Shown here: positions 5,347-62,066 of the stretch, piece by piece | Position numbering within the stretch: position 1 is the stretch's first letter | Layout: every line of letters begins with the position of its first letter | Assembly (NCBI RefSeq): GCF_029962835.1 | Contig: NC_080583.1 | Span: forward strand, 2,294,001-2,358,000 | Length of the DNA: 64,000 nucleotides | From: Magnolia sinica | Lineage: Eukaryota > Streptophyta > Magnoliopsida > Magnoliales > Magnoliaceae | Direction: 5' to 3' | Translations under genes and position numbers: made by a program | Notes under the pieces: model-generated | Told to the model about the DNA's origin: nothing | The model's input: only the letters and a program-made list of their open reading frames with translations | Databases searched by the model: none

Positions 5347-5403
5347 TTACTAATATTTGTGTTTTCCCTTCATCCATCTACCTGGTTAACCGCTTAAATG
5401 CTA

Positions 5404-5606: not shown

Positions 5607-6115
5607 CTTATCGTCCCGAGTAAACTCATTTGGACCCACCTTGAATGTATGTGGTCTATCCACGCCGTCCATCCGTTTTTCCATCTAATTTAATGCGTTG
5701 AGCCGAAAATTGAAGTATATCCAAAGATCAAGTGGATCATACCACAGGAAACAGTGGGGATAATGATTTCCACCGTTGAAACATTTCTAAGCCCCACAGT
5801 GATGTTTATTTCTCATCCAACCTGTTCATAAGATCATACAGACATGGATGAAGGGAAAATACAAATATAAGGTTGATCCAAAACTTCTGTGGCCCCCAAA
5901 ACTTTTTCAATGGTAAACGTTCAATTCAACTTTTTACTGTGTTGTGGTCCATTTGAACATTGCGTATGCTTGATTTTTGGGTTTATGCCCTAAAATTATC
6001 TGGTAAAATGGATGGACGGAGTGGATAATATTAAAAAAAAAAAATCGTGGTGGACCCCACAGAGTTTTCTCAGTACGCTAACCGTAGTGAGTTATTCACT
6101 ACACAATCCGCTTTC
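5607..6115. mobile_element. foldback MITE, AGTTACTCA-ended family
   Basis: The two halves are imperfect inverted copies. The left half has CTATCCACGCCGTCCATCCG, CAAGTGGATCATACCAC and TTTCCACCGTTGAAAC; the right half has TTTTTCAATGGTAAACG, TGTGGTCCATTTGAAC and ATGGATGGACGGAGTGGAT. The right end read in reverse begins GGAAAGCGGATTGTGTAGTG, the terminus shared with the other foldback families here. A second copy is at 59753-60214. Non-coding. Confidence 0.65.
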
Positions 6116-11487: not shown

Positions 11488-11502
11488 CAACCCCCAACCA
11501 GC
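11488..11502 (-). other. polypurine-like tract next to the 3' LTR
   Basis: The minus strand reads GGTTGGGGGTTG immediately before the LTR start TGTTGAGGG. Position and G-richness fit a plus-strand primer, although two T pairs interrupt it. Confidence 0.5.
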
Positions 11503-14705: not shown

Positions 14706-15318
14706 GGTAGAACCCTAACTCTGAGTCTAATTCTAAAAAAAATAGAAGAAAAGATCCTACAGAAGTATGGAAAGTAAGAGGAGGAGAAGTTAGAAAGAAG
14801 GTACCAAATGAGAAGTTCCTATGTTAAGATCCTGTAAAAGAAAACAATAGAAAGTTAGTTTCTAAAAAGGAAAGTTCCCTAAACCTAGAAGCTAAGTTAG
14901 TTTCTAAAAAGAAGACCTAGAATTAGAAAGTTTCTAAAATAGAAAATCGAAGCCTAAAAATAAAATAAATGAAAGATGAGTTAGTTTCTAAAATTAGAAA
15001 GAATTTCTAAAAGGGGAAATAATTAACCTAGTTTCTAAAAACAAAAGATGAAGGTTTAAAAATAAACTAGTTCCTAAAAATAAAAAATACTAGAAAATAG
15101 AAAATTTTCAAAACTCAAATCCTAATTCTAAAAATAGAAAAAGTAGAGGAATTAGAAAGGGATTACCAGTTTAGAAGTTTATGTCAGGATCCTACAAAAC
15201 AGGAAACAAGTTAGTTCTAAAAATCAAATAGAAATAAAAATCTAAGACTAAGGTTAGTAAAATCCTAATCTCAAACTAATTCTAAAACTAATTAATTTCA
15301 AAGAATCGTAACCGTCAG
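14706..15318 (-). repeat. leader of the LTR element with TTTTTAGAAACTA-type repeats
   Basis: Between primer-binding site and ORF, the minus strand repeats TTTTTAGAAACTA-like words many times (as given: AGTTTCTAAAAA at about 14853, 14899, 14977, 15029 and variants). AT-rich, purine-rich, without a frame. Confidence 0.6.
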
Positions 15319-17556: not shown

Positions 17557-17561
17557 CATAC
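17557..17561. repeat. target-site duplication CATAC (right)
   Basis: Identical to 9180-9184. Confidence 0.9.
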
Positions 17562-18918: not shown

Positions 18919-21900
18919 GTGATTGGACTATCATTTATGCCAATTACTCATGGATTCCGTGGATTTATCAGAATCAAGATGCTATTTTTTCATTATATGT
19001 GCGCTTATAAGCTTTCGAGTTGTTCAAAGACATATTTTAGTGGGATTCATTCACTTCACCATTTTAAAAACAAGAAACCCATCAAACCAACTAAGAAGAA
19101 GATTGGAAGATCTACCAAAGACCGTGGTAAGAGGGTGGATAAAGAGCCAAAAGTTTATATGAGGAATACAATAGAAAACATATCAAAGATTTTGAGGTTC
19201 TCAACATGGGATTCGGCTCGAGAGCGGCTAGAAAGCCTCCCAATAAAATGGGATTCCTATACAATCAACCAGGTGCTGAAAACCCACCCGCCCATGGAAA
19301 AGGCTTGGCTGTTTTTCAATTGGGCGTCCCATCTGGGTGGATTTAAGCATGACCAGTTCACTTATACAACGATGCTGGACATCTTTGGGGAAGCAGGGAG
19401 GATTCCATCGATGAAATTCATCTTTCAGCAGATGCAAGAGAAAGGTATAAAGATAGATGCAGTAACATACACTTCACTAATGCATTGGCTTTCGAAGGAT
19501 GGAGATGTCGATGGATCATTTAAGATGTGGGAGGAGATGAAAGCTATGGGCTTTCGCCCGACGGTTGTGTCATATACTGCCTTTATGAAGGTTCTTTTTG
19601 ATAATAACAGGCCAAAGGAGGCTGCTGAGGTTTACAAGGAGATGCTTGAATCGAGGTGTTCGCCAAATTGCTACACTTACACAGTTTTGATTGAGCATCT
19701 AGCTGGCGTTGGTGAGTATAGTTATTTATGTTTATTTACTTTGTTTTATGCTCCACCTATGCATTGCATCTATTGTATAATGCAGTTAAAATGATTTTTT
19801 TTTTCAATTCGTGTGGAATGATGTGACAAATTCCCAGACTTTGGAAGTATTTATAGGACTGTCTAACATGTGTCATGTATGGTATGGATTTCATATTTTT
19901 ATATGTCATGTTCACCAAGTTAATTAGGCAATTCATTTAAAGATGCTCGAATGCTCTTAGAGCACTATTAAGTTATAGTGCTCCTAGTTGCATTGGAACA
20001 CCTAAGCAGTCCACCAGTCGATTAATCTAGAATGTCCATTATGTCCAACACATTTCATGGGTTACCATGCAAATATGACACCGTTCTGTTGATCTTATCC
20101 ATCTAATCAATGGCCTCTAATATGGATGGTCAAGATTGTTTGTACAATAATAGGCCTCAGTGTGGGTTGCTTATGATCCATCTATTTGATACCCTCATCA
20201 TGGATTGCATATGATTCTGAAGAATCACTTCTGTTATGCAATCCTAACCATCCCATCTGTGGGTTGGAGAAAGAATGACTCTAAAAGAGACCAAACCTAC
20301 GATGGATTTGATCATCTGATAAGTTTTGATTTTTCATGGTAGTTCTTGAAATATGTTCTAGACTTAAATGGACTGTTTAGATTGGCCTCTTGAACTCTCC
20401 AAGTACCCAATGCAACTGGCACCAGTGTTACTTATAATGCTCTGAGAGCATTGGAGCATGTCTCCAATTCATCTACATACATTTTATAGCTTGTTGATGC
20501 ACCTTGAGTTTTCAGTCATTCGTCTCTTTTATTTTGATAGACAACTTTGTTCTTCTTTCCTCCCTGTAGGAGTGCAGTATTCATAACCATTGGTATTGTG
20601 GTGACAGATTGCCCTCATTTGTATAATAGTGAAGTCTTATGAGATGCTTTCCATGCAAGGTATTCCGTAACAGTAACGGTGGCCGTAACAGCCACCACCG
20701 TTACCTTTACGATACATGTTGTAATGGCTGTTACAACCCCCGTAACAGCCGTTATGGAATTTTTTTCTTGGAAAAAAAAAAAAACCCAAAAAACCTATAT
20801 CTACCCTGTAACGTTGAAAAAAAATCCAAAAAACCTATATCTGCCCCGTAACAGACCATTACGAGGCTGTTACGGCCATTACAAGAAGTGTGATGGGCCA
20901 TTAACAGCCGGTCATTTTTTCCATAACAGCTTTTGTGGCTGTTATGACCCTATAATGTAAAACGGTTGCCACCATTACCTTTTACATAATGGCATTTACG
21001 GCACACCATGTTTCCATGATCCACTTGTAGTACTGTGGCATCTACCAGTGGTGCCGGTACCGCTCCACTGTACACTACAGTGTTACAGGGAAAATGTGGG
21101 GCCACGTGAATACATGATGCATTCATTAAATCCAACCCATCCATAATATGCACCAGAGCACATTACCCTCAGGAACCTAACATCAAACTGATCAGTGAAT
21201 CAGGTGGGCCACGCAACAGAGTATACATTGGGAGGGAATGTCCACCCTTGATTTACATGGAAAGCTCACCTCATTGTTTATTATGAAATCCACTCCATTC
21301 GGACTCCTCTTCTGGTTTGGATGAAGGCCCAGGCTGAAAATCACTGTTTTGAACTTGACGTGGACCCCGATGTAAATCAAAGGTGGGTCATTCTCTTTCA
21401 CATTTCCCTTGTCATGGCCTACTTGAGTGTTGGATGAAGATCGTTTTTAGCACCGGGGGGTAATAGGAGGTGACGCATCTGATAGACAGGTTGGATGGCC
21501 TTCATACATCACATGGGCCCGACATCTGCCTGGTAACACCATAAGCTTACACCATTACAACTCGAGCATGCCCCTTGGAGAATTCCTCTTTACTACTGAT
21601 ACTCCGGATCTTCATAAACTCATCTCTCATAATTTAATGTTCTATTAGTGATGGTATGCCTAGCACATGAATATATAGCATGTCACCATGGGCTTTCATT
21701 AGTCAGTCCAAGGTCTTCTAATGCAGATATTGTTCCTTGATGAAGCAAGAAACATATTACATGGGATAAGAAAGTCAGCCAATACACATTGGATTTGTTC
21801 AACCGACCTTATACTCTCTTTAGATAAGATGGGAACATGGATGCACGTTGGATTTTTACAAACGGATTATGGTTTGGGTTTACGCTTAAATTTTAGTTCC

Positions 21901-27615: not shown

Positions 27616-28243
27616 CTCACACGAGGAAACGGATTGGCTGGTGCACCTCACACCAGCCATACAGCTGCTGTATCGACGTCAGCAAGTTCTGACGGTCTGA
27701 TCCTGGGGTGAAATCGTCCCTACATTTGGCGAGCTCGCCTTTAAGGATTTAGGCGAAAACTAAGACAGGTCTAGCTATCAAGTGGACCATAATGCAAAAA
27801 GTAGCGGGGGATTGAACGTATACCATTGAAACCCTTTTTGGGGTTATAGAAGTTTTGGATCAGTATGAAATTTTTTTTTCCTCTTCGTTTAGGTCTTTGT
27901 GATCTTATGAGCAGATTGGATGGAAAATAAACCTTATGGTGGGCCCTATTAATTTTTTAATGGTGAAAATTATTATCACCATTGCTAGTTGTGGTGTGGT
28001 ACAGATGATCTTTGGATATGATCCGTTTTTTGAATAATGCTCTAAAATCATCTCAAAAAATAGATGAAAAATGTAGATATAATAAATACATCATAATGAG
28101 GCCCATGTAACTTTGATCTCCTCTGAACCGTTCGTACGACTCGGAGGTCGAGGAGCGTCAGTGCTCGTCTTCGCACGACACGTACCTACAGCAGCTATAT
28201 AGCTGGTGTGTGGTATACTAGCCAATCCGCTTCCCTCACACGA
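27616..28243. mobile_element. foldback MITE with 9-bp target duplication (GCTGGTG family)
   Basis: The element proper is 27625-28234 (610 bp), flanked by identical CTCACACGA (27616-27624 and 28235-28243). Terminal inverted repeats of about 48 bp start GGAAACGGATTGGCTGGTG on the left and GGAAGCGGATTGGCTAGT read from the right; each contains a small internal hairpin (GGTGCACCTCACACC). The interior is an imperfect inverted repeat with AAGTGGACCATAATGC and GTGGTGTGGTACAGATGATC. A 9-bp duplication suggests mobilisation by a Mutator-like transposase. Non-coding. A second copy is at 60630-61511. Confidence 0.85.
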
Positions 28244-28269: not shown

Positions 28270-28835
28270 CGCTCTAGTGGTAACGGTAGCACAGTATGCT
28301 TACGGTGGCATCGAGCAGATGTGGGACCCGCATGATCCATTAAGACCATCCAAACCGTCCATCAGACGAATCACCTCATATTATGCTAAATGTCAAGAAA
28401 CAGGCTGATGGAACACTCAAGTGGGGGACAACACTGGGAACAATGTGAGAGAGAACTCCTACCCTTGATTTCTACAGGGACTCACCTGAAGTGCAAAACA
28501 TCATGATATTTGGTATGACCCTTCATCCAGGACAGATGAAGGGTCTTAACTGCATAGATTGCATATACACAACATGGTGGGCCCTCCACAGAAATCAGGG
28601 TGGGCTTTCCCTTCCAATCTGTACCCCATGTTTTCGCCCATTGATTAATGGATTATCCTGATTCTCAGGATCTGGAAGAATTATTTTCTGAGGTATCTGA
28701 TGGACGGATTGGATTTTATACAGATATTACGTGTGCTGCATATCTGCCCAGCATCACCATACCCACAATAGCCATGGTGGGCGTTCCCTTCCAATCTGTA
28801 CCGGTACCACCGAGCGTTCCCCACACCCACAATTG
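28270..28835. mobile_element. foldback-like dispersed repeat
   Basis: GTAACGGTAGCACAGTATGC near the left end and TCTGTACCGGTACCACCGAG near the right end resemble the ends of 21025-21560. The interior contains ACCCTTGATTTCTACAGGGA and an inverted counterpart CCACAGAAATCAGGGTGGGC. The bounds are approximate. Confidence 0.45.
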
Positions 28836-42705: not shown

Positions 42706-43863
42706 AAAGTTATAGTCAATTTACGGTCCACCTTCTTTCAACCCAACCATGCTAGGAACATATCTATGACACATTCTACATCATATACTAGCTTATTTGA
42801 ATTTAGACCTAACTCCAAGCAACTCACTTGCATTCTTTTTGGAGAAAGGTAGTGGGACTACTACTTAATCTTTATTAAATGATGAAAAGAGAGTATAAGA
42901 ATGGAGACCAAACCTACATGGCCATTGAAAAAACCAACAAGGAATGCAAAACCATCCGCTATTTAATACACATACACAATAGCCCCATGTTATCTAAACA
43001 AAACAACGTGCATAACTTCACAGGAGGAGCAAATTTATGAAATGTGCTAATCCCAACTGAATCACACACATATGAGCCATTTTTACTTACAGTCCCAACT
43101 CCTAAACTGACTAAGCTGCTAATACTAAAGTAATTAGAGAATCAGATATGTACAATAACAACATGAAGTTCATGGCATAGCATTAAAACATAACAAAAAA
43201 GAAAAAAAATAATAAATAAATAAAGTACAAAAATAGTAATATAATCCCCATTAATAAAAACAACATGAAAAAGAAAATTTTGAAAATATATTTTCTCTAA
43301 AAATGGTTTTCCGTCTGACCTAACTTAAATAGCCATTTCATCTTAAAACAAACCTTACGAACGAGGGTATGTAAGTCTGAATAGAAATGATACATGTAGA
43401 GTTTTAAACCTTGGTCTTAAGGGACAAAATGCCTTCTCTTATCTATGTTTCTAAATAAAAATCTCTTTTTAAAAAATAAAAGGAAATATTTTGAAATAAA
43501 AGTTAAAAAACGATTTTTTTACATTTTCAAATTTGAAAATGTACACATCATTTTTTAAAATAAATTAACCAACTAAAAATATCTTCTTATTTGAAAATAT
43601 TTGAAAAGATCACCACCCATGTGATGATCGAGCCGTTTTCTTCGTAAGGCTCCAATAAGAATAGGTCAGAGGCCACAATGCCCGTAACAAGATTATTATA
43701 ACCATGTAAAAGAAATAAAATATAAAAATATTAACCCAAGTCCAGTGATTTATGTGCAGTCTTTTAAAATAACTGGCTTGTCTAGCCAGCTAGGGTTTTT
43801 CAACATTGGGTTTCTTAATTAATTTAAAGGGGTGAAAATGGGCCACGTGGTCCAGTCTGTAAG
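42706..43863. other. intergenic, nothing recognised
   Basis: AT-rich with an (AAAT)-rich tract near 43200-43225. No gene. Confidence 0.4.
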
Positions 43864-44590
43864 GCGGCGGATTAGGTGTAGCCTCAGCCTCGGTCTCACC
43901 CAAGGCTGTGGGGCTCACCTTAATGTATATATTTTATCGTCACGCCATGCATCTATTTTTGTTGGAGGACTGCGGAAGCACACAACGGTGAATTAAGTAT
44001 TACAATCGCACCACTGAGACCAATCATAAATATTTCGAATTTAAAGCACTTATGCAACTCTACGTGACTCCATGCAACTATTTATGACCCTTCAATATCA
44101 TTTTAATAGTATCAAATAGCCTTTGATAGGATCAAACATCTTCGACATCATTAAATTAAAACACCAAAATATTTTAACAGTGAAACATGAATTTTTTGAA
44201 TTTTTTCAACGGCATCAAGATGTCTTTGACAAAAATGAAGAAGACCCAAATCTCACGGACAGTATTAATTGAGAGCCCTACCATTAAAAACTTCATACGC
44301 CTAATATAATGTTTCCATAATTTATATTTACCATCCAACTTGTTAATAAGGTCACATAAGCTTAAATTTTTTAAAAAAAAAAAACACGGACATACCTTAT
44401 CCAAGGCTTTTGTAGCTTATTAATAGTCCATCACTACTGTTTCCCGTAATATAGTTCACTTGAGAAATGGATCTACTGAATTTTTGAGCCAATGCCCTAA
44501 AATGATATGACAAAATGGATTAATGGAGTAGATATAGAATACATACATCAAGGTGGGTCCCACTGTAAGGGCCAGGCTGAATTCGCTCCC
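43864..44590. mobile_element. foldback MITE, GATTAGGTG family (diverged copy)
   Basis: The left end GGCGGCGGATTAGGTGTAGC and the right end read in reverse, GGGAGCGAATTCAGCCTGG, are the family termini. CTCACCCAAGGCTGTGGGGC and AGGTGGGTCCCACTGTAAGG are the subterminal blocks. The middle is extended and AT-rich compared with the ~515-bp copies. Confidence 0.6.
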
Positions 44591-46424: not shown

Positions 46425-46953
46425 TACCGAAAAGGTCGCGGATTAGGTACTTACCCAGGCCCCACCAAATACGGTGTGGTCCTTACCGTGGTGTACACTT
46501 TGATGTATGTATTCTACATCCATGCCGTCCATCGGGTTTTTCAGATCATTTTTGCGCATCAACTCAAAAATGAGCAAGATCTAAATCTCAGGTGGGCCAT
46601 AACATCCAGTTCTGAGTCACCTTATCAAAAGGTTGGATGGAAAATAAACATTAGTCAAACATCACAGTGGGCCTCAGGAAGCTTTTAATGCTGGGGTTTT
46701 CAATCACCACCGTTTCTTTAGTATGGTCCACTTGAGATTTGGATCTACTTCGTTTCGGGGCTTATATCCTAAAATGATATGAAAAAACGGATGAACAAAA
46801 TAGATTTAGAATACAAACATCAAGGTAAATGAACTTGAAAAATGGATGGACGGAATCGATTTAATACACATATATCAAGGTGGGGCCCACTGTAAGAGCC
46901 GCGCACCGTCTTGGGTGAGGCCGGTCCGCATCTAATCCGCTCCCTACCGAAAG
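46425..46953. mobile_element. foldback MITE, GATTAGGTG family, with target duplication
   Basis: The element is about 46434-46944. The left end is GGTCGCGGATTAGG; the right end read in reverse is GGGAGCGGATTAGATGCGG. TACCGAAA precedes and follows it (46425-46432 and 46945-46952), giving an 8-bp perfect or 9-bp 8/9 duplication. The right half contains a local ~75-bp duplication (AAAAAACGGATGAACAAAAT near 46783 and AAAAATGGATGGACGGAATC near 46839). Non-coding; the halves form an imperfect palindrome. Confidence 0.8.
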
Positions 46954-47352
46954 GCCTCTCGTGTGATTAGACGGAGCACACGTGCCAGACGAGCAAGTAT
47001 ATGGGACATTTGATAAGGTGGCCCCCACCATAAAAGTGGACCGACGTAGAATTCGTAATGGACCTGGTCGGTCACACATGTTGGATGTGGACCGTTGATA
47101 ATTTTTTAAACCGTCCACTTTTTCATATGACGGTGGCCCATCTGACAAGGTGACGAGTCTGATTGTTTCATTTTGTTCATCTTCAAGGTGGGGACCACCT
47201 TATTAACCACTAAGATAGTCCTCACAAGTGCCATTTTGGCACGTATGCTGCTCGTGAAAGCGCGTGTGGGGCTAGTAAAACATCTCACGCAAAAACGCGT
47301 TTTCCCGTCCCCGTCAGTAGTCACGCAGGAAACACAGCAACTTCATAAATCA

Positions 47353-47877
47353 GGGAGGAGATTAGATGCGACCCCGGCCTCGCTCCATATGGTACGACCC
47401 TTATAGCGGGGCCCACTTTGATGTATTTATTATATATCCACACCGTCCATGTGTTTTTCCAGATCATTTATCCAATGATTCCAAAAATTTAGATATAATT
47501 CTGAGGTGGACCACACCCTAAAAAACAGTGGTGGATGACCATTAATGGGCCATAGAAGTTTTGGATCAATCTTATATTTATTTCATCCCTTCATCCACGT
47601 TTATGTGACATTATAAAAACGTTTTATGGTAAATTAAAATTACGTAAACCTCATTGTGGGCCCTAGGACGCTTTTAAAGGTAGATCATTCAATCAACACT
47701 GTTTCTTATAGTATGGTCCACATGAGATTTTGATATTCTTAATTTTTGGATCATGGACTAAAATGATCTGAAAAAATCGATGGACGGTGTGGATATATAA
47801 TTTATACATCAAGTTGGGGCCCATGGTAAGGGTTGCACCGTCTTGGGTGTGTCCAGGGCCGCACCTAATCCTCTCCC
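47353..47877. mobile_element. foldback MITE, GATTAGGTG family
   Basis: 525 bp from GGGAGGAGATTAGATGCG to CGCACCTAATCCTCTCCC. Left and right halves are inverted copies (CACACCGTCCATGTGTTTTT on the left against AAAAAATCGATGGACGGTGT on the right). Flanking ATAAATCA and ACAAATCA (7/8) may be the target duplication. Non-coding. Confidence 0.75.
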
Positions 47878-48295
47878 ACAAATCAAGGTGGAAAATAGCT
47901 TCCGTAATCTGGCAGAAGGCAGTGGTTCCTACGTATGCACTCAGCTTTCGTACACGTGGCAAATACATAACCCGAATCAGATTCTGAAAGTAGTGGGGTC
48001 CACTCTAAAAATAGCATAAGCCAAAATTTCTGTTGAAAAGATTATTCTAGCGGTCTAATTGATGGACATATACTGGACGGTTAAGATTAAAAGCAGGCAC
48101 ATGTCTAAATTCATCCAAATCGTAGCTTTGGTTCAACCAACTACTCTTATTTTTTATATACGTGAACTTGAATGGGGCCCATGAACTTGACGGTTTGACG
48201 AAAGTTGCATGGATGCGATGTACATAGTCAGCGCATGCATACCAAGCGTCACGTGTTTGGTGCATGTTATGGGAAAGGATTTGGTGGGGTGGGAT

Positions 48296-48446
48296 AAAAA
48301 TAAATAATAATAATAAAAAATAAAAAATAAAAAAATTGTAATTATTACGTATGACCGAAATTGTCCGTGTGCGTGTGATTTCACCACTGGTGGGTACTCG
48401 TTCTTGAAACTCTTGGGAGTCTACCATCCGGTAAGAGTAAGGACCA
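48296..48446 (-). mobile_element. degraded SINE, first family
   Basis: The minus strand reads GGTCCTTACTCTTACC, GGTAGACTCCCAAGAGTTTC and GAGTACCCACCAGTGGTGAA, then an A/T-rich tail (48296-48335 as given). It matches 17801-17943, but the B box (GGGTTCGA) has decayed. Confidence 0.6.
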
Positions 48447-49150
48447 GAAATTGTCCCCAATTACCATGTGATAACCATTGGATAAGCCTAATTCATGTTG
48501 TATTTGTAACATGGTGGTACATTGAATAGATATACCCATCCTCATTTGAAACTATTAAGAGTAATACAACCGGTCATCTTTTTTGTAACCTCATTTCATG
48601 TTATAAGCATAAGTATGAGGTAGATCCAAAACTTATGTGACTTTAAAGAAGTTTTCAAGTATAGTTATTCAATCCCTGTAGCTTTCTATAATTGAGTTCA
48701 CTTGATCTTTAAATCTACTTGATTTTTTGGCCTATGCTCTAAAATAATCTTAAAAAATGAGTGGAATGTATGGATATAGTCCGCACATCATGGTGGGACC
48801 TACACAACTTGCAAACATTGAGTGGAATTGGAATAGGATAAATGCAATTCCATCTAATCTAATTTCAACTCTTTTTATTAGCACAAGACTGAATGCAATT
48901 TCATCCCACCTAATCCCATCTAATACCATGTGCCAAACCACTCAGTTTTTGAGATCATTTTAGAAAATGAGCCAAAAAACCATATAGATCTAAAGCTCAT
49001 GTTAACCCACCACACCATAGAGAGTAGCGAGGATTAAATACCTGCTCTTGAAAGCTTATTTAAGGTCACATAAGCTTTGGACCTGTTTCAATTTTAAGCC
49101 CATGACATAAAATGAGGTTACAAAATAGATAAACGGTTTGTATATAACAA
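48447..49150. repeat. foldback-core fragments interrupted by a Tourist-like MITE
   Basis: Core-like words of the foldback families occur at 48605-48810 (GTAGATCCAAAACTTATGTG, TTGAGTTCACTTGATC) and at about 48950-49145. Between them, 48820-48945 carries GGAATTGGAATAGG and ATCCCACCTAATCCCATCTA, the style of the MITE at 2014-2526. Confidence 0.5.
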
Positions 49151-49923
49151 GTGTTATTTTCAATAATTTTAAATGATGGTGCATTTATTTATTCAATGTA
49201 CATCAAATCAGAGACTGAATCCCAGTATGTTACAAACATAGCAAGGAATCAGGCTTATGGGAGGGCAACACGGACAATATCCGTAATAAGTACTTCTTCT
49301 TCTGTTTTTTTCAATCCCTTCCCACCTAATCCTCCCCGGATACCATGCGCCAAAAAGGTCAGTCCTGCTGGGCCATATATCAGCTGAAGGTCGCTGAAGG
49401 TCCATTTCTGGTGGTCCGCCTCCCTTTTGTATGAAGATGATCTTAACCATTGTAAAGTTAGATCTGCATGTAAACCATGCAACATACTCTGATTTTATTC
49501 CTTTAATAGATTGAACGGCGAGGATAGTTTGCGGCGACTCGTGATGGGACCTACCCTTAGACGGTTGATATGCATGGTACAAAAATATGGGCCATGGGTA
49601 CAAATATCAGATCCACTCCGCCCATTAGATGAATTATTTGGTGCTAGATTGTTGGTACCAAAATAATTCCGAACGGAAACGAAGGTGGGCCACACCACAA
49701 AGGACAGTTTGGAGGAACGCCAACCGATAAAATATTCACCACTGTTTTATGGGCTAAGGCGCTGTGCGTATACCATCCAATCCATTCATCAGACGTGACT
49801 TACTGATATTAATGGATGCGCAGTTGACGTGGGACCCACAGAGAATCCCGGTGCTACCACAAGTTATGGGGCACCGATGACATATATCATATAAGAGCGC
49901 TTCCCCAAGTACTACTGTAAGAT
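49151..49923. other. intergenic, nothing recognised
   Basis: A second remnant CCCACCTAATCCTCCCCGGA at about 49320. No gene. Confidence 0.4.
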
Positions 49924-50425
49924 GGCAGGATTGCCTGTGACCCAGGACACAGAGATATTCCTGTGCCCGGGGCTGTGTGGGCCCACAGGGATTACCATGA
50001 CATATCCCCTCCGTCCATTTGTTTTGAAATAACACAATAGGATGAGATTATAAAAATCAAGCAGATCCAAAACTCATGTGGGCCATAAATCACGAAGCAG
50101 TGGGGATTAAAACAATGGGGGTGAAAGAAGGTTTGTATAATATAATTTTTGTTCCCACAGTTTATATGAGTGTTATAAACCCTATGAACGGTTTGGATGG
50201 GATGTAAACATCATGGACGGCTTCAGAAAGGTTTCAATGGTAGACGTTTCTGTTCCAATTGTTTCGTTCGTGTGGCACACCTGAGTTTTGGATCTTCCTT
50301 CGTTTTATAATTTTTACATTTCAAAACATATGGACGGGTTGGATTTATCAATGGCATCTAAGTGAGCCCCACACAATCCCGGGCACAGTTATATCTATGT
50401 GCGGGGGTCACAGGCAATCCGCTTC
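49924..50425. mobile_element. foldback MITE, GCCTGTGACC family
   Basis: Terminal inverted repeats of about 60 bp: left GGATTGCCTGTGACCC, CTGTGCCCGGGGCTGTGTGG; right read in reverse GAAGCGGATTGCCTGTGACC, CTGTGCCCGGGATTGTGTGG. The core contains GCAGATCCAAAACTCATGTG and ACACCTGAGTTTTGGATC, shared with the other foldback families. No coding capacity; target duplication not resolved. Confidence 0.75.
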
Positions 50426-51887
50426 GGCATTTTCTTCTGGACCGGTGCTTCTGGGTCTATGCCATTTTCGAACATATGCCATATATTGTACGAGATCAAA
50501 ACCGTTCATTAGTATTTTGTCTAGTGGACAGGCCTGATTTAAAAATTTTAATTTTTAGAAAATCCTAACCGTTAGTGGTGGGCGTGGAAATTAACACTGG
50601 AGAATAAAATCGTCGACTGTTCCCATTTAGTGAGATAAAATCCATATATTGGACGGATAGGATAATATAATCTAAATAAATTTTTGCAATAAAAATTCAA
50701 AGGCAGATAATACAAGATGACTGGATTGGATAATCGTTTACATTTTTTTAAATGTATCATACATAATATTGAGGCACGAAAGTGAAAGTTACTCCCTAAA
50801 ATAAAAATACTTTTTTTAAAATTATTTGGAAATAATATTATATGGATAACCTTCAATACCGTCACGTAGTCTATGCAAGAATTCAGAATTGTATGATCCT
50901 CAGGCGGAGGATATGTGTAGTGTGTACTCTGACCTTAGTCCATGAAAGCTGGGGCTTTGTCATATGATCCAGACCATTGATCTGATGGATCACGCCATGA
51001 AATGAAGATTACCCGGAAATCTTGCCTATAGAAAGCGGTATCCATCAATCGTTGTTGTGTGCATCCAACGTTTATAGAGGTTGGAGGAATCCTCATGCAA
51101 ATTCCCACCTATGGACGGTGGTGATGGGGCTATCGGGGTAATTGATCACCAGTGGACACGATATACACCGTACATAAAACATATGTGATAGATGTGATTT
51201 TATTTTATGCTCGACCCGACGTGGGGTGGAGGAGAGGTCATCTGATCCGTTGATCTGGTGGGTCCTATGATGGAAGAGGCCATCCCTCCGTGTCTCCACT
51301 TTCAGATGATCCTAGCCGTCCATCCACTAGAAGTGCATAACTAGCAGATCCGCCAGGTGGTCCACCTCATCCACTTGAATGAATCGGATCGCCAAAAGAT
51401 GGGCCCTACATAACGCGTGCGATGTCTAAGACATGCGTCACATGGCCCATGCATGCCGTAGCCCAAGATCAGATCGAGTCCACTCATCAAGTAGGCTGCA
51501 GGGTTTAAAAAATGGACGGCTGAAAACTTGTTTCAACGGTCCGTTCATTTTGACCACTACTCCGCAAGCTCAGCTGATCAACGGTGTGGATGCTCACCCC
51601 ACATGCACGTGGATCGCCTGTAGAGGCTCTCGTCACGTACATACGTATGGGATTATCAAACCACACGGCAGGGCAGCTGGGACGCGGTTTGGCTGGCTTC
51701 CCAGCTCTAGCCACCTGGCTGGTGTCGAGGCTATGCGGGCCTATCTATGTATGTGTTTTTATCACGCGGTCCGTATATTTTTCCCCTTATTTAAGGAAAT
51801 GAGCCAAGAAAGTTTAATTAGTCACTGCAAGTAAAAAAAAATTTTAAAAAAAAAGAAAGGAAAGTGGAGGTATATTTAAAAGGGTGA
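50426..51887. other. intergenic, nothing recognised
   Basis: No supportable gene. Open frames around 51433-51834 overlap on both strands and do not look protein-like. Confidence 0.4.
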
Positions 51888-52513
51888 TGTAACATTCTCG
51901 ATTTTTGTTATTTTAGATTTCTAATAACGCTTGAAAATTTTTATTTTAAATAACTTATATTGTCACTTACTGACCATTAACATTTGATATTAGTTTATAC
52001 GCAAGTAGTACTGATAAAGAATCACATCAATCTGATTAATCAACCGTAAGAAGCTAATAAATCATGCCGATCACTTAAACACCGAGTTTAGCCACACGAT
52101 TTGCTCATGTAAGGTCAAAATCTAACCAACCTATCATTGACTAATTGAGACAACCGTAACTAAATAAAAATCTAATCAAAGCCGAGACGAATAGGGGTCA
52201 GATCTTAATTAACAAATCAAATTAATCCAGTTACTCATTTAGCCTAAAAACCAACGGTTTAGGGTTATTAAGACCGAATCGTCATTTTCACTAATTACGA
52301 ATAGACCACACTATGAACATAATTAATCCAAACCCTAATTACCGCGTACAAGAAATTTTGCCACCTAATTCATTTCATAAATACATTGATTATCCAAACG
52401 AGCTCTAAACCGCTCGTTAGTAGGCCACTAGTTCTAAAACTATAGAATAATGTCTGTTTTAATGGGCTCGATATCAATCGCAAGAGTCAGACCTGGGTAG
52501 TGTCCAGAACCGC

Positions 52514-55500
52514 TGTAACATCCTTGATTTTCACTGTTTTGAATTTCCAAAAATCCATCAATTTTTATTTTTTATTTTATTTAATTAACTTATAATATCA
52601 CTTAATGACCATTAGCACTCAGTGATAGTTTAATCACGGGTGGAACTAGTAAAGAACCGCACCAGTCCGATTAATCAGCCGTAGGAAGCCAATAAATCTG
52701 CCCAATCACTTGAATATCAGGTGTAGTGTAACATCCCACCCAACCAGAACAGTGTCCTGGAGCGTCTACATAGGATTCGCCACAGGACTGTTCATTTAAG
52801 CAACTTATAGTGATGTATCACAAATAAATTAAACTAAGATTAACTCAATTGAATAGACCAGACGAGCCTTGATAGAACCTGGTGCAGGCCTCCAAGCCAG
52901 ATGACCGTTTACACTTAGCAACAGCCCGTGCGGGCTATACCGCGACATGGGAAGGTCAGAAAATTATAAAAATTCAAATGAGCATAGATCTCACTGGGCT
53001 TGGGGAACATCGCGGACCACGGACCCAGTGGACACTCAGAAGTGGAATCTGGCACTTGCCAGATGCGCCCCACCAATGCCAAAATTAAAATCTGGCGCGT
53101 GTAAATAAAACTAAAATGTAAGACATTTCAGCCATCAGATTTCTTCATAATTTACGATGAGGGTCTAATGTATTTTTCTACACCCGTCCACAAAAATTTG
53201 GGTCCTAATCGTGAAACGGTGACCGTTGATCGCAAATCGGACCGTTGCGGTAAAACCCTGCATCCGTTTACCCCCAAATTTTTCATGGCCCTTCATCGGG
53301 CCATGGAGCACATATTCTATTAGTTTCATGGCCAGAGGGCCACCAGAACTGTCCTGATTCTCCAAACAAGCTCTACACCGCTCGTTGGTGGGCCACTAGT
53401 TCCAAAACTATAGAATAATGTCCGTCTCACTGGGCTTGACGTCCATCGCGAGAGTCAGACCTTGGTATTGCCCAGAACCAGTCAACTTGAGCCAAAGGAC
53501 GAGTGCATGAGAAGTGCAAATATCCTAAAGGAAGGAGTTGGAACTTAAGTGAATTGATTCGTCCACACTTATGCAAAGTTGAGGATTTCGGACCGTCGGT
53601 TTGCGACCAAACTTTACCCATTGAGTAAAGATATTTCTCTGCTCATATTCGTATAGCCGCTGCCCAGATCGACTATCGGCGACCGTTGAACGAATTTCTA
53701 ATCATATCTGTCGATCGGCGCATCCAAATGGCGGGCCGATCATATCCATACGTAGATCATCATTAAGGTTAACTATTTTGCGGTGTATATCGACTTGTAC
53801 TCCCCATAATGGGCCCTAGAGCTTAAAAAGACTCTCTTATAAGTCTAGTATAGTAAAAACCTAGCACTTGGGGCCATTTACATCAAATCTGGCATTATAA
53901 AAGGGTCTCATTTGGGGCACCCCTCTCCCCATACGAATTTGCCCTAGAGAGAAAAGGGAGAAGAGAAAGAGAGAGGAAGAAGAAAGGAAAGGAGTATGTG
54001 TTAGGATGTGGGGCCTAAGGAAGTCCAACCTTGCAACTCTTTACCCATTCTCCAAGGAAACCTCCACCAAACCCACCCATGCCAATAAGTAGAGGTAAGA
54101 ATGGTATATTTCCCTTCAATAGAGCAACTTAATGTAGATTTATAAGCATTAATGTTGTCTTTCTTGATTTTGATTTAGGAAATGGTGGTTTTACCTAAAT
54201 CTCCAAACCCTAAGATCTCAAAGAATGGAAATCTCTTCTTAAGGTGCGACCTATTATCTTTAGGTGGCCTAGCACCAATTATAGTTGGAGTTTAATGATT
54301 TTGTTTGCTTGGTATATTGTATGGAAGAATCTAGAGGAACCTAGGAATGGTATGTTGTTGGATTGTATGGAATGACATGTTTAGTTCTCCTTGATGTTAA
54401 ATCTTGCCTCTCATGATCTAGTGTATGGATGATTACATGCTCGTGTTTGTTTGATTTCCTTTTCTCTCATATGTGTTGTTTCTTAGTGTGTTGATTCATT
54501 GTTCTTGTGTAATTGATCCCTTGAGGTGTAGGAAGTGCTTAATTTTCTCACCAACCCACACCACACACATACACCTTATTCATGATATTTATAGTTTGTT
54601 TGCTAGAGAAATTTGAATTGTATGTTAAGCAACATGAGAACATGGTGATGAATATGCTTGATGTTATATTGGTAGTTGGCATGCTATAAGTCATTATTCC
54701 TACCCTTGGGTTAGTCAGGAACATGAGGAGAGCGAAGGTGGTTCCGTTGGTAGGACCACCTTGAGGCTAAACCCATGGGTTTGGGCGAGTACGTGTGGGC
54801 GGTAGTAGTTAGGCTACATGGGTCGCTTGTACCCGATGTCGTTCCACCACATACTTGTCTGGGCTCGTGCGATTTAGTCCACTGGCTGACCCACCTGGTT
54901 TGTTAACCTTGTTTGCTCATATATGTATGGAAACTGAAACACCCTACCACCGTTGTAGCCCATCGATACCGGATGGAATATTGATCCACAGTCTCTTGAG
55001 CCGGGCATGGTGGAATGGGACACCGTGTCCGAGCTGTCGGCCTATGCTGGGGTGACGCGCCTCCCCATAGTAACCGCGAGCGACCCCACATTCAGCACCC
55101 CCATGTGCTTGAAGTCGGGGATTGGGGAAACCCGACGGGGTCAAGGATCGCGGGGTCTCGGCCTCACACATTGGGGGGTCTTGGCCTCGCAACTAGTTCA
55201 GGGCATTTGATACGTGGGGTGTATCAGATTTCCAAATCTGCTGGATGAATGGACTTAAATAAAAACCCGGTTAACATCATCATTGCATGACATTAGCTAG
55301 GTTGCCGACTCGGCAGTCGAGGTCGCACTGAGGGAGTGTTGTCATACGCGATCGTTAGATGGAGTCGCTCGAAGGAGTGTTGTGGCGAGGGCATACATCA
55401 TATCATCCTGCATGTATGCGCATTAACAAAACTAGATAGATGTTTATGATTGATTGCTTTTCATTAAATTCTTATTATAATTGATGCTTGTTACAACTCA

Positions 55501-55980
55501 TGGCTAATAGTACCCACTGAGTTGATCACTCACTCCCACTCTGAGACGGTGTTTTAAAACACCAACCAGACCCGTTCATAGATGCAGGTGATACAGATTT
55601 CGTGGAGCCTAGTGATGCGAGCCTCGAGGAGGATGACGAGTTCTCTTACTTCCAGCTGATGGATGGTTCCCCGTCGGCCTAGTAGACAAGATTTGGATCG
55701 CTGAGTTGTGGACTCAGCCCTATTCTTTTGGACATGATATTCTTTTTGTGATTTTATCGGGCAATGCCTGATGCGACCATTTTTATATCCTTTTGGACCT
55801 GTATATAATTATCTATTTTCATTTCAGCAGACTAGTTGTGATCGTGCTTCATGTTTCAAGTAATTCCATGCTGCGCCTTTAAACCTGGATTAATCGCATA
55901 TTAATGAAAACCAATTGTAAGTGACCCCGGGAACTCGGGAGTCTAGCGTATGCACGACCCCCGATTTTCAGGGTGTTATA
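52514..55980 (+). mobile_element. inner solo LTR with perfect 5-bp TSD
   Basis: 3467 bp from TGTAACATCCTTGATTTTC to GATTTTCAGGGTGTTATA, flanked by ACCGC (52509-52513 and 55981-55985). It is mosaic: 52514-52725 resembles the outer LTR start, 52727-53354 restarts with TGTAACATCCCACCCAACC and resembles the LTR at 39713-42705, 53355-53960 again resembles the outer LTR, and the remainder resembles the 39713-42705 copy. No internal coding domain. Frames at 54855-55250 are shadows in conserved LTR sequence. Confidence 0.8.
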
Positions 55981-57439
55981 ACCGCTCAACTTGAGCCGAT
56001 GGACAAGTGCATGAGAAGTGCAAATACCCTAAAAGAAGAAGCTGAAACTTAAGTGATTGGGTCATCCAATCTTACGCAAAGTTGAGAATTTCGAACCGTA
56101 AGTTTACGACAACAACTTCACATGTAGAATAAGGATATTTTTCCACACATATCCATATAGTCGTGGCCCCTATCGATCATCGTCGAGCAGACTTCTAATT
56201 ATATCCATCGATCGGCGCATCCAAATTGCTGTCTGATCATGTCTATGTGTGGATCATCATCAGGGCTAACTATCCTACGGCGTATATCAATATGTACACC
56301 CCATAGTGGGCCCTAGATGTTAGAAAAACCCTCCTATAAAGCTAGTATAGTAAAAAAATTTCAGCCTTTGGGGCCATTTACACCAAATCTGACACTATAT
56401 AAGGGCTTGTTTTGGGCACCTTATCTCTCCATATGAATTTGTATTTTCCAAACGAGAGAAAGAAAGAATGAGAAAAAGAAAGAAGAGAAGAAGAAAGGTG
56501 AAAGTAGGAGCGGGGAGGCTTTAGGTATTCCCTTAATCGGTTTCCTCCAATCAAAGCCCTAGCATCGATCATTTTCCTCCGCCGAATCTACCCCACTCGC
56601 GATTGGAAGATAAGAAACAAATTCTACCTTCTAACCTAGGTTTTTTTTAAAAATGAATTGCATAAATCTCATATAGTTCTTTGTGATTATATCAGAATTT
56701 GTGATTTTCTCCAAATCCCTAACCCTAAGAGATCAAAATCGGATATTCCATCTTAAGGTGCGGACCATTATTTCTAGGTTATCATTTATCAACCTTTGAG
56801 GGTATCAATTAATGATTAGATGCTTGTAAATGAATTTGCACATGCTAATATGTAAATGTTTTGATTTGTCTATAATATATGTTATTTGTTGAATATGGAT
56901 GCCCACGTGTTTGATGAAATGCTTAAATAGTGGAATGTATTACTTTTTTTATGCTCATATGCTTGATTTAATATGTAAGTGATTGTATTACTTTATGCAT
57001 GCTCCCATATTTAGTTTAATGTCTTAGTGAACGTAATATCTCATGTATGCTTACATGTTCGATGAAACGCCTATGTGGTTATGTCGTTGAATTTATGTTG
57101 ACGGCATGACGAATTGCTAAGTTTACACTGATGCCTAGGTTGCTTACAATGTTGGGTCAATCGGTAAATCGCTCAAATCAAGGGGTGACCCTAGTTAGGG
57201 CGACCACCCTAGGCTTGTTTAATCGACCCAGGTTGAATACGGACGACCGACGGTAGCTGGATTACACAGGTTGTTTGTATCCAATGCCGGTTATGTCGTA
57301 GTTTTCCCAAGTCAATCAAATTAGTTCACTAGCCGACTGATCATATATGTTCACAATGTATGACACAATTAAATGGAATCCAGGATACCCCGTTCCCAAT
57401 GGATGTATTCATTTATAACTGTTAATGTGATACGATCCC

Positions 57440-57636
57440 ACTAAGACTCATGAGCTGGATATGGTGGTATGAGACACTACGTCCGAGCTGTCGGTATACG
57501 CTGGGGTGACAAACCTTCCTGTAGTGACTAATGAGCAACTAAGACTCATAAGTCAAGTATGGTGGTATGGGACATCGTGTCCGAGCTGTCGGCCTATACT
57601 GGGGTGACGATCCTCCCCATAGTGACCAGTTAGCAC
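57440..57636 (+). repeat. 98-bp tandem duplication within the outer LTR
   Basis: ACTAAGACTCATGAGCTGG at 57440 and ACTAAGACTCATAAGTCAAG at 57538 begin two copies, each containing GTCCGAGCTGTCGG and CTGGGGTGAC in the same order. The other LTR copies have one. Confidence 0.8.
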
Positions 57637-58766
57637 TGATGGAGGTGATAGACCATTGTTCGAACGGCCCCTGTCAAATTATTCAGCCGATGGTTGCGTG
57701 CTAGAGTACCGTTCGAACGACCCGGGTGTTAATAAAATTGAGTGACGAGCTCTTTCCTTTATATGTTTTTGGTTTTGTGTGACAATCCCGAACCTCGGAA
57801 CTGAGTGATCATACCCGATATTGGGTGACAATTCATACCGGGTTGATCTTCATATATTTAGGTATCATACTGTATCTTTGGAATTATTGATTTGTGATAT
57901 AAATGAGTAATACCTAAATTTTGATTAAGAGACACTGGTAAGGAACAACTACGTGCGACAACGAGCCACGTGATTCGGATAAAGACTCGTGATATAACGT
58001 TGGTATCTTAGATTCACCAATATGCTGGATGAATTAAATTTAATAATTACTCGGCTAACATGTCATTCACCGCATTGCATTAGCTTAGAATGTGGCGAAC
58101 AGGCCTGGTTGTCGCGTGATGAAAAAGTGTTGTCATTTCCTAAACAGGTAGTCGGAGTCGCGTGTGAGGGAGTGTTATTTGGAAAGGGTATACATCATGT
58201 CATATCTTCATATGCACATTTAACAAGAGTATTTAAGAATTGTTTGATTTTTTATTTATCATTAACTGCATTGATTATGTCGATAGTATATGTAACTTAG
58301 AACTAATGGAACCATTGAGTTAGCTACTCGCTCCTGCCTGGGACGGTGTTTTAAAATACCAACCAGGGGTATCATTAATGCAAGTAAGTGAGACCTCAGA
58401 CAGGTAGACTCATACCGGGTTGTGCCAGCGCTATTATGTTTTGGAGAATTTGGTGTAAATTGAAGGCTTTACACTTTAATCGTCTTGGGTATATATATTG
58501 TGGATTGTGGTTTGTATAATCCTATTTTGGGCGATCATCACAATTAGAACTGTATTTCTAACTTTTAACTCTATATTTATGAATCTATTGTTATCTCTAC
58601 ATCGCTTTGCATCCGCTAATTCGAATTGCGCTACTATGATTATTCGTGTGTGAAATGAATTTGAATCTGAATGAGGACACACGTGCATTCTCATTAGGTT
58701 AACACCTGGGAACTCGGAATTGGAGTCTTTGTACTCGGGTGTCGATTTTCGGGGCGTTACAGGTTT

Positions 58767-59752
58767 AAATTTAATTGATGAAATTCTAAGTTTCAAATGG
58801 ACCACAAACACAAGATCATGTTCGAGTGACTAACCAATGAAATTTAACTGTTGATTTAAATGGACAATGTTTGGACGTTGTTGATCATCACATTAGAGTA
58901 ATTATAGTGATACAGTTGATAATTTAGTTGTTTTGGGATATCATTAGTGGGTCATGCGCCCAATAATTTTTGATGGGATTTGAAATCCCTTATTACTTTA
59001 TGGTGCCAAATAACTAGGATTTGAAATCTCCTCAGTGCGGTCCATAGTGTTTAAGAGGGGATCCACCCCACTAGGTGAGATTCACACCGCCCAGGGGGGA
59101 TCCACCCCTGGACCCTTTCCACACCCACATACACATCCAAAATTAATTCCATAGACACGTGCACATGCACATCCTACTCGCCGTATGAATCGCTAAAATG
59201 AAGAAAAGCTTCAAAATGTTGTTGGAGGATTGTCGGAGTGAGCGGTAAGCAGCAGTTCCCCCTGATGGTGGTAGTCTCCCTTGTGGCTCCTTTTTCCCAT
59301 AATATATACACTTATAGAATGATATTGTGGGGCCCATTGTGCATCTCCATTGAAATCTCCTCCGACTATTAGGTTGGGAAATTAACCTCAGGTCATGGGC
59401 CCAAGATTTGGAAAAGAAAGCATGTAAGATGTACAACACTAGAATCTAATAGAGAAAGTATTGCTCTCTCTTTTGGGGGCCTCAAAAGCCTAGGATGGAG
59501 ATGAAATCAACGCCCTTAAATGTTCAAGCATGTCTTAGATGAAACGAACGGATCAAATTGGCTGAGGGATAGGCCAAATCATTATTTCCATGTTTCGAAG
59601 GATAAATTTGTCAGAGAAAAATTCAAAATCTCATCTTTGAGGCCAAAAAAGTATCCCTTATGAGAAATAAGGTCATTTTGAGATAACATTATTTCATAAA
59701 GTTATTATGGTAAAAATCATTAAGAAATCTGTGTAGCTGCTGATTAAGCTTT
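58767..59752. other. intergenic, nothing recognised
   Basis: No gene. Contains CCACCCC-rich sequence at about 59040-59120. Confidence 0.4.
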
Positions 59753-60214
59753 TATCCCGAGTAAATTCAGCTGGGGCCATTGTGAATGTATGTTGTTCAT
59801 CCACACTGTCCAAACATTTTTCTTCATCATTTTAGTGGTTGAGCTTAAAATGTAAGCATATCCAAATCTAAAGTGCCCATCACAGAAAGAAATGGGAAGA
59901 TGGACTTCCACCGTTGAAACCTTTCAGGCCCATAGTGATGTTGATTTGTCATACAACCTGTTCAGTGTTCATAATATCACACCGACATGATGACGGGGAA
60001 AACACAAATAACAGCATGATCCAAAATTTCCGTGACCTTGAGAAATTTTCAACGGTAGAATTTCAATTCAAACTGTTTCTCATCCAAGCTCTAAAATTAT
60101 CTGTTGAAATGGATGGACGGATCAGATAAAATAAATAAATCACGGTGGATCCCATGGAGTTTATTCAGTACGCTAAACGTGTGTACTAAGTTACTCATTA
60201 AGCAATCTACTTCC
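59753..60214. mobile_element. foldback MITE, AGTTACTCA-ended family, second copy
   Basis: TCCCGAGTAAATTCAGCTGG, CTTCCACCGTTGAAACC, AAATGGATGGACGG and GTACTAAGTTACTCATTAAG follow the same order as 5607-6115. The right end read in reverse begins GGAAGTAGATTGCTTAATG. The left terminus is unclear. Confidence 0.65.
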
Positions 60215-60493
60215 AACCTTTTCCGGGCAGTTGGCACCTTATACCAAACTTAGATTTTATGATAGTTCATACCATCATTTTAATATTGGATGTAATTCAT
60301 CCACCTTTTACTCATGACACCGTCCAAAATCTCTATGCCGATTGCAACCGTCTGATTTTTACGATTAAATATGGACCATTCACCACTTTACATTTCAATC
60401 ATCCATATGATAGCCACCAAAAAGATGGCTAGGATTCATAAACTATACGGTCCATTCAATGTTATACGTATACGGAGATAGAGGGTTACTTGA

Positions 60494-62066
60494 TACTCTG
60501 GCAGAATGTGGTGCTTGTGACACTGCCGCTCTGGGCTCTGGTTAACAATCCGAACGTGACGCGAATTTCCTGCTATCACTGTTACAAGGAACACGTGTAA
60601 CCGAAGTTCCGAAAAATAAGGTAGATTTAGGAAGCGTATTGGCTGGTGTACCTCACACCAGTTATATAGCTGCTCTATTCACGCCAGTAAGATTTGTAGA
60701 CTGGTCATGAAGTATGTGTCATGTCTAAACCACACCAGTTACATAGCTGCTCTATTCATGCCAGCAAGATTTGTAGACTGATCATGAAGTATGTGTTATA
60801 TCCAAACCGTTCGTTCATCTATTTAGTGAGCTTGGATTCATATAATAGCCACGAAAATATTGAATAGGATAACAATCCGATCATGACGCGAATTTCCTGC
60901 AATCACTGTTACAAGGAACATGTGTAACCGAAGCTCCGAAAAATAAGGTAGGAAGCGGATTGGCTGGTGTACCTCACACCAATTGTATAACTGCTCTATT
61001 GATGTCAGCAAGTTTTGTAGGCTGATCGTGAAGTCTGTGTTATATCTAAGTCATTCATCCATTTAGTGAGCTTGTCTTAATGCTTTAGACTAAAAATAAG
61101 ATAAATTTAAGTATCAAGTGGATTAAAGTGAAAAAAGGTCACCACAGTTTCCAATCAATATGCAAAACCAAAAATAAAAAAATTCCTCTTCATTCCAGTC
61201 TTTGTAATGAACACATTGGATGGGAAATAAATGTTATCGTGTGCCATACATAGTTTTTAACAATGAAAATCATTATCTCTCTTACTATTTACGGTGTGGT
61301 TCATTTTTTCCATAATGCTTTAAAATGATTTCTAAAAATATATGAACGGTGTAGATATAATAAATACATCATTGTAGGGCCATATAACTTTTATCTCCTT
61401 TGAACCGTTACTTGAACTTGGAGCTTGAAGTGCGTCAGTGCTCGTCTTCTCACCACACGTACCTACAACAGCTACATAGCTGGTGTGAGGCACACCAGCC
61501 AATTCGCTTCCGTAGATTCAGAACTCAATTGGGCCCACCACAATAAACGGTGGAAAATGTTCATCCACCACAGAAACCTTCTTGTGTCCCACAGAGGTTT
61601 TAGATAAGGTTGATATTCTGTTTTCCCTTTATCTTGGCGAGAATCACCATGTGAACGGGTTGGATTGCATTGCATGCAGATATTGCGGTGAGCCCCAGTG
61701 GTGGGCGTTTCCATCTCCACCGATTATTATGGTGTGGCCTACTTGAGTTTTTCATCTGCCTACTTTTCCATCATGCCTAATATGAGCCGCAGAAACTGAC
61801 GATAGAATTGATATCAACCGCACATCACGGTGGGCCCACGGAAATACGGGCTCCAAGTAACAGTTTAATAAGGTTGTAGGAATTGTACGTCCTTAGGTTG
61901 TTTCAATTTCCATCTAGTTAGTTACAAGAGTAAATCACTATAAAATTGATTTTCTGGTCCATCTAATCAGGTCTCAAAATTTTGGACGGTTTAATTTGAA
62001 TAAATTTCATCCGACATGTAGAATTTACTAGCGCACGAGTATCAAACACCACATAATACCAGAGTA
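60494..62066. mobile_element. TACTCTGG-ended TIR element containing a foldback MITE
   Basis: Left TACTCTGGCAGAATGTGGTG and right, read in reverse, TACTCTGGTATTATGTGGTG are inverted repeats; the right subterminal segment matches that of 36499-36866. The interior holds the GCTGGTG-family foldback MITE (60630-61511) and a tandem duplication. No transposase. No target duplication found. Confidence 0.6.
60621..61520. mobile_element. foldback MITE, GCTGGTG family, with internal tandem duplication
   Basis: The element is 60630-61511, from GGAAGCGTATTGGCTGGTG to CACCAGCCAATTCGCTTCC. The flanks GTAGATTTA (60621-60629) and GTAGATTCA (61512-61520) match at 8/9. A second complete left terminus GGAAGCGGATTGGCTGGTG lies at about 60953, preceded by a copy of the upstream host sequence (ACGCGAATTTCCTGC at 60558 and 60881), so a ~323-bp segment spanning host DNA and element end is duplicated in tandem. 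Confidence 0.8.

What the first reader, a model, noticed from the sequence alone, without database searches (positions are those of the whole stretch)
46434..61511. Four foldback MITE families share one extreme terminus and one core but differ in between
Elements at 5607, 27625, 43864, 46434, 47353, 49924, 59753 and 60630 end in variants of GGAAGCGGATT. Immediately inside they split into four types: AGGTGCG, GGCTGGTG, GCCTGTGACC, and GTGTAGTGAATAACTC. Their centres share GTGGTCCACTTGAG, TTTGGAT and ATGGATGGACGGNGTGGAT. This modular design (constant tip, variable subterminal block, constant palindromic core) suggests repeated exchange of subterminal cassettes under one transposase. I do not know a described superfamily with this arrangement.
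Basis: partly seen in the sequence, partly recalled or inferred. Interest (0 to 1): 0.75.

Follow-up and report, generated by a model that had tools for sequence, protein, structure and literature searches.

The report
Magnolia mini-transposons with swapped end blocks
A very abundant family of small, non-coding jumping genes in a Magnolia genome keeps the same outermost tip and the same centre, but the short stretch between them appears to have been replaced several times in its history, the reverse of what is usual for such elements.

Summary
The genome matches Magnolia sinica. The elements are Mutator-type foldback MITEs: of 74 copies delimited by tips alone, 18 have a perfect 9-bp target duplication (control 0 of 20,000 draws). 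They share an 11-bp tip, roughly GGNNNCGGATT, and a ~420-bp imperfectly palindromic core. Between them lies a 40-120 bp block. I labelled 12 block types, not four. Blocks of A, B, C and D show no significant similarity to one another, whereas 47 of 49 same-sized core windows do. At matched core divergence, different-type pairs have block identity 0.55 (shuffled 0.51) but 0.71 in the adjacent core, which suggests replacement, not slow divergence. Replacements look old and few: block labels need 17 changes on a tree of 134 cores (minimum 10, shuffled mean 84), 13 after relabelling (minimum 11, shuffled 81); 77 of 80 doubly labelled elements have one type at both ends. Repeated exchange among present copies is not supported. 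Core copies number roughly 10^5. No autonomous element was found, so "one transposase" is untested.

The parts
27625..28234 (.). Type B element; core at 27714-28107
   Evidence: 9/9 target duplication CTCACACGA on both sides; core by profile
46434..46944 (.). Type A element; core at 46485-46892
   Evidence: 8/9 target duplication TACCGAAAA/TACCGAAAG; core
47353..47877 (.). Type A element; core at 47406-47826
   Evidence: Arms 117 nt, 77% complementary; duplication 3/9 in the register used
49924..50426 (.). Type C element; core at 49976-50375; left tip degenerate
   Evidence: Block arms and core; duplication 2/9
60630..61511 (.). Type B element whose left end is tandemly duplicated (second copy from 60951); core at 61020-61381
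   Evidence: 8/9 target duplication GTAGATTTA/GTAGATTCA brackets 60630-61511; duplicate 86% identical
43863..44590 (.). Degenerate type A-like element; profile core match only 44230-44565
   Evidence: Tips with 2 mismatches at both ends; duplication 6/9
5631..6115 (.). Type D core with right block and tip (6105-6115); left tip missing, abuts a second partial core at 5350-5574
59772..60214 (.). Type D core with right block and degenerate right tip (60204-60214); no left tip recognised
48605..49150 (.). Core-like pieces (48605-48806, 48941-49150) inside a larger foldback; no tips assigned
61513..61842 (.). Partial core directly beside the type B element
28320..28730 (.). Weak core match (90 bits), no tips recognised
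21095..21524 (.). Weak core match (60 bits) between two PPR open frames
2744..3165 (.). Very weak core match (32 bits)

Best explanation
These are non-autonomous foldback MITEs of Mutator type, all of one old and very large lineage. SHOWN: the layout tip (11 bp) - block (40-120 bp) - core (~420 bp, imperfect palindrome) - block - tip; 9-bp target duplications; homologous tip and core in nine block types that each have a copy with an 8-9/9 target duplication; no detectable similarity between several blocks; block type inherited with core lineage and shared by both ends. INFERRED: the block is the stretch of the terminal inverted repeat read by a Mutator transposase's DNA-binding domain, and the tip is where the strands are cut. 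In the past a new block was installed in discrete events, about ten for the labelled types, each followed by clonal amplification. A likely route is recombination or template switching while an excised copy is repaired, after which the foldback lets one arm copy the new block to the other. Each switch would let the MITE be moved by a different Mutator transposase.
For: 9-bp duplications: 18 of 74 perfect, 23 of 74 with at most one mismatch, control 0 and 0.00025 of 20,000. Cores of A, B, C, D end at the same boundary. Block against block: 13 of 113 different-type pairs at p<=0.02, none among A, B, C, D; core windows 47 of 49. Core identity 0.65-0.75: different-type pairs block 0.55, outermost core 0.71 (n=559); same-type 0.76 and 0.76 (n=145). 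B and F share the inner 18 bp of the block (0 of 2,000 shuffles) but not the outer 34 (p 0.12), a breakpoint inside a block. Labels follow the core tree. Both ends agree in 77 of 80. 98 of 98 tip-plus-block sites lead into core: 96 by profile, 2 truncated ones by reading.
Against: No autonomous element and no DNA-binding test. Types were defined by block motifs, so the same-type block identity is partly circular. Different-type block identity (0.55) is slightly above shuffled (0.51, 95th percentile 0.58), and B, E, F and N blocks are partly similar (11 of the 13 significant pairs), so part of the variation may be divergence. 51 of 74 delimited copies have more than one mismatch in the duplication. 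82 of 156 cores could not be delimited by two tips. The tree has 67 of 131 inner branches under 80% support. If all blocks came from other transposons, some should sit on other interiors; none of 98 did, but these 98 cover only types A-D.
Confidence: 0.6

Rival explanations
1. The block diverged gradually but very fast, tracking the changing DNA-binding domain of one diverging transposase lineage, with no recombination.
For: Block type co-segregates with core lineage. B, E, F and N blocks are partly similar. A and P share GGATTAGGTG and lie together on the tree. Different-type block identity is a little above shuffled.
Against: At the same core identity, block identity has a main peak at 0.50-0.60 and a lower plateau at 0.65-0.85, while the adjacent core has one peak. 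Within types, block identity follows core identity. B and F share one half of the block only.
Confidence: 0.22
2. Repeated, ongoing exchange of subterminal cassettes among circulating copies.
For: Unrelated blocks on a common core. One candidate: L061:1745-2194 has an E-like left block and a core placed beside B.
Against: 77 of 80 doubly labelled elements agree at both ends. Label changes are near the minimum. A single origin of E including the candidate is not rejected (AU p 0.24), nor of A (p 0.73).
Confidence: 0.08
3. The core was captured separately by several unrelated Mutator families, each bringing its own ends.
For: Would explain unrelated blocks and symmetrical ends.
Against: All 98 A-D tip-plus-block sites examined lead into core. 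The core boundary is the same in A, B, C and D.
Confidence: 0.08
4. Chance resemblance of unrelated families.
For: None found.
Against: Tip excess, zero reversed-pattern controls, target duplications, core homology.
Confidence: 0.01

Closest known systems
Mutator-like MITEs and long-TIR MULEs of plants (PMC3310237 and PMC12550479; passages read)
   Same: 9-bp target duplications, G-rich tips, long terminal inverted repeats, no coding capacity.
   Different: In the usual account (recalled, and in line with those passages) related elements share the terminal repeat and differ inside. Here tip and core are shared and the outer part of the repeat differs.
Galileo of Drosophila mojavensis (PMC3573991; passages read)
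   Same: Foldback-like long ends, subfamilies that differ in their ends, exchange proposed as a source of new subfamilies, including copies with both ends of one subfamily and the centre of another.
   Different: P-element superfamily with 7-bp duplications. There, 12 of 170 copies are chimaeric with non-matching flanks; here 77 of 80 doubly labelled copies agree at both ends.
Tm1 Mutator/foldback family of root-knot nematodes (PMC3169594; passages read)
   Same: 9-bp duplications, composite foldback ends, MITE-like members and a transposase-coding member.
   Different: The passages read describe no series of unrelated blocks between one tip and one core.

Membership tests
Mutator superfamily (MULE), non-autonomous | Target duplication of about 9 bp | tested here: met
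   18 of 74 perfect at 9 bp; 0, 0, 1, 0 perfect at 7, 8, 10, 11 bp; control 0 of 20,000 at 9 bp
Mutator superfamily (MULE), non-autonomous | Terminal inverted repeats | tested here: met
   Window arms; type consensuses
Mutator superfamily (MULE), non-autonomous | Mobilised by a MULE transposase from an autonomous element with the same ends | tested here: inconclusive
MITE | Short, non-coding, high copy number | tested here: met
   470-660 bp typical; 12,933 exact copies of one core motif
Foldback element | Most of the element is one imperfect inverted repeat | tested here: met
   A and D consensuses match their own complement end to end at 76-77%; C over 184 bp per arm at 93%; B only over 48 bp at the ends (98%) and 116 bp of core (72%)
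Galileo-type chimaeric families | Copies whose two ends belong to different subfamilies | tested here: not met
   3 of 80 by label; one of these is E at both ends on reading and one took its label from a neighbour

The most novel reading that the evidence does not exclude
A MITE lineage has lasted by changing locks: it keeps the cut site and a palindromic core but replaces, at both ends, the segment that a transposase's DNA-binding domain reads. It thereby passed from one Mutator transposase to another about ten times or more and became a major DNA transposon lineage of its genome. The conserved core would then have a role of its own, for instance in copying one arm onto the other.
Probability: 0.3. 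Interest if true: 0.8.

Novelty: new variant of a known kind. Interest (0 to 1): 0.55.

Why it matters
How non-autonomous elements outlive the transposases that move them is an open question. If the reading is right, one lineage with roughly 10^5 core copies offers a dozen natural end-replacements on a common core, ordered by the core tree. One could then ask directly whether transposon ends can be re-keyed without loss of mobility, and whether palindromic interiors help to spread a change from one end to the other.

Tried and rejected
Copy number from the exact 21-mer GGTCCACTTGAGATTTGGATC: 2,133 genome hits but in 0 of 156 cores, so dropped. Scaled instead from ATGGATGGACGGNGTGGAT: 12,933 hits, in 9 of 156 cores, about 2 x 10^5; the error is large because nine is small and type D is over-represented in the sample.

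Driver: typed lists of 52 A, 78 C and 90 D tips (not every listed C and D site) against the 150 listed MULE domains: none within 40 kb. Of 7 typed B tips against 3 domains, two lie 8.7 and 37 kb from one domain, on the strand that points away from it. An inward pair of exact A tips 14 kb apart has no matching duplication and each end leads into core: two MITEs. Two K tips 3.7 and 6-6.5 kb from MULE domains, noticed by eye: the first is a complete MITE with duplication CTATTTTAG, the second is core-bearing and unresolved. Pfam on 8 window ORFs and on 10 of 31 locus ORFs of at least 150 aa: no MULE domain.

Tree outliers were read singly: six rows set aside, two relabelled as a further type R. 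This was after seeing the tree; both counts are given. Two labels had been mended by hand before the tree.

Hairpin blocks as a general rule: mean z -1.47 and 49% of 130 blocks under -1.5, against 17% of 60 core windows and 12% of 60 random windows; strong in D, K, B-right and C, not in A, F, M, N or P. Not used as a defining feature.

Core mobile by itself: direct repeats at core boundaries only slightly above mismatched partners (9 bp: 2 of 153 against 0.6; 7 bp: 10 against 5.2; 5 bp: 53 against 41.6).

Tip found without presupposing it: 27 cases against 3.2 in the control; 9 are an internal type D palindrome. Of the other 18, about ten are elements whose loci had been fetched by a tip pattern, so only the remainder (types E, F and M, and one in the window) are independent.
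Full report
WHAT WAS CHECKED. The window lies at C11:2294001-2358000 of a genome of 1,838,573,281 bases in 127 contigs. Tips are in excess in the window (8 against 0.74 expected). Tip-plus-block patterns occur 52 (A, exact), 3,613 (B, exact), 360 (C, up to 1 mismatch) and 297 (D, up to 2 mismatches) times in the genome with no reversed-pattern match.

WHAT THEY ARE. A profile of the four type cores found 342 non-overlapping matches in 360,124 bases (98 loci plus window); 164 were near full length, 156 of them unique. With ends set by tips alone (up to 2 mismatches each, duplication not used), 74 of the 156 could be delimited. Of these 18 have a perfect 9-bp target duplication and 23 have at most one mismatch, against 0 and 0.00025 in 20,000 mismatched-partner draws; 7, 8, 10 and 11 bp give 0, 0, 1 and 0 perfect. 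So they are Mutator-type. The other 51 lack a clear duplication, from age or wrong ends.

ANATOMY. Consensuses of A (5 copies), B (17), C (8) and D (10) match one another through a ~420-bp core whose ends fall at the same GTGGGGCCCAC-like boundary: A 54-476, C 56-464, D 56-482, B 130-555. Outside lie block and tip. Twenty-five non-anchor core intervals of at least 340 bp printed with flanks, and 74 elements accepted, show further blocks: E (GGCTACTCCCC), F (AGATACTGACAGG), K (GCGTCCTACCCC), M (TTCCTTGGAAAGC), N, P, Q, R. Types with a copy at 8-9/9 duplication are A, B, C, D, E, F, M and N and K: nine; for N it is one copy at 8/9. One search accepted partly on the duplication itself, so its counts are not used as evidence of excess; one search is.

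BLOCKS SEEM REPLACED, NOT JUST DIVERGED. Of 113 different-type pairs of representative blocks (consensus for A-D, single copies for E, F, K, M, N), 13 reach p<=0.02; 11 of these are among B, E, F and N, the others are E-K and M-N; none joins A, B, C or D to one another. Of 49 core windows of the same size between those four types, 47 do. At core identity 0.65-0.75, different-type pairs (n=559) have block identity 0.55 and 0.71 in the outermost 35 bp of core; same-type pairs (n=145) have 0.76 and 0.76. Shuffled blocks give 0.51, 95th percentile 0.58. Types were defined by block motifs, so the same-type figure is partly circular. Without labels, block identity has a main peak at 0.50-0.60 and a lower plateau at 0.65-0.85, while the adjacent core has one peak near 0.65-0.75. 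B and F share the inner 18 bp of the block (0 of 2,000 shuffles) and not the outer 34 (p 0.12).

BLOCKS ARE INHERITED WITH THE CORE. Of 80 elements with both ends labelled, 77 agree; of the other three, one is E at both ends on reading, one took a label from a neighbour, one (P/A) was dropped. A tree of 134 labelled cores (22 of 156 dropped: 21 unlabelled, 1 conflicting; two labels mended by hand first) needs 17 label changes, minimum 10, shuffled mean 83.8, 0 of 200 shuffles as low. After the outliers were read, six rows were set aside and two relabelled; 13 changes, minimum 11, shuffled 80.7. Single origins of E (AU p 0.24) and A (p 0.73) are not rejected. N and R, two rows each, are not together. 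A possible true exchange is L061:1745-2194 (E-like left block, core beside B). Half of the inner branches (67 of 131) have under 80% support.

WHERE BLOCKS OCCUR. Of the 98 anchor sites, 96 have core within 250 bp inside the tip; the other two begin with core and are cut short, by reading. So no A-D block was seen on another interior. Either the autonomous partner carries core in its own ends, or it is rare or gone. Of the MULE transposase domain (PF10551) there are 1,104 candidates, 150 scored; no copy with these ends was found.

MECHANISM. Shown: layout, 9-bp duplications, inheritance, and the identity pattern that favours replacement. Inferred: the block is the binding segment (that long MULE ends hold transposase binding sites is stated in PMC3310237) and a switch changes the enzyme that can move the element. 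Equal ends suggest that a new block enters one arm and is copied to the other. Galileo gives a precedent for exchange founding new subfamilies (PMC3573991).

ABUNDANCE. Core-like sequence covers 5,371 of 64,000 window bases and 40,269 of 156,800 bases in the outer parts of the loci; the loci are a biased sample. 12,933 exact copies of one core motif, scaled by 9 of 156, give about 2 x 10^5 cores; order of magnitude only.

LITERATURE. Eight searches of the open PMC library (listings seen) showed no title or abstract that describes this arrangement in Magnolia. The search for tip strings found 29 papers, 15 listed, none of them on transposons by title. The library lacks most subscription papers, and supplements were not searched.

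VERDICT. Real, more than four families, a new variant of Mutator-type foldback MITEs. The modular picture holds; ongoing exchange is not supported; one transposase is untested.

Noticed in passing
window 9185-11489 and 15343-17558: Two long direct repeats, about 98% identical, beginning TGTTCACTCC; they look like the LTRs of a retrotransposon, with a 538-aa open frame (13098-14714) between them that has no Pfam match.
   Followed up: partly
window 18919-19794 and 21982-23007: Two PPR-repeat open frames with a weak core match (21095-21524) between them, perhaps in an intron.
   Followed up: no
window 201-698 and 818-1237: Two RNase H-like (RVT_3) open frames on opposite strands.
   Followed up: no
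window 60540-61049: The left end of a type B element and its flank are tandemly duplicated, about 86% identical.
   Followed up: partly
L007:2110-2660: A type E element is inserted into an A-like tip; the target duplication is GCGGATTAG, part of the tip itself.
   Followed up: partly
type D blocks: The two ends of type D differ (GGAAGCGGATTGYGTAGTG and GAAATCGGATTGCGTACTG). The block palindrome TACTGAGTAACTCAGTA also occurs as TAGTGAGTAACTCACTA, a paired change that keeps it palindromic.
   Followed up: no
G000, e.g. C1:105190218, C12:64505094, C18:18358394: Eight MULE-domain loci with the same score (115.7 bits) and open frames of 493-780 aa without stops: perhaps a recently active autonomous MULE family.
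   Followed up: no
window 48329-49309: A larger foldback with several nested inverted repeats that holds core-like pieces.
   Followed up: no
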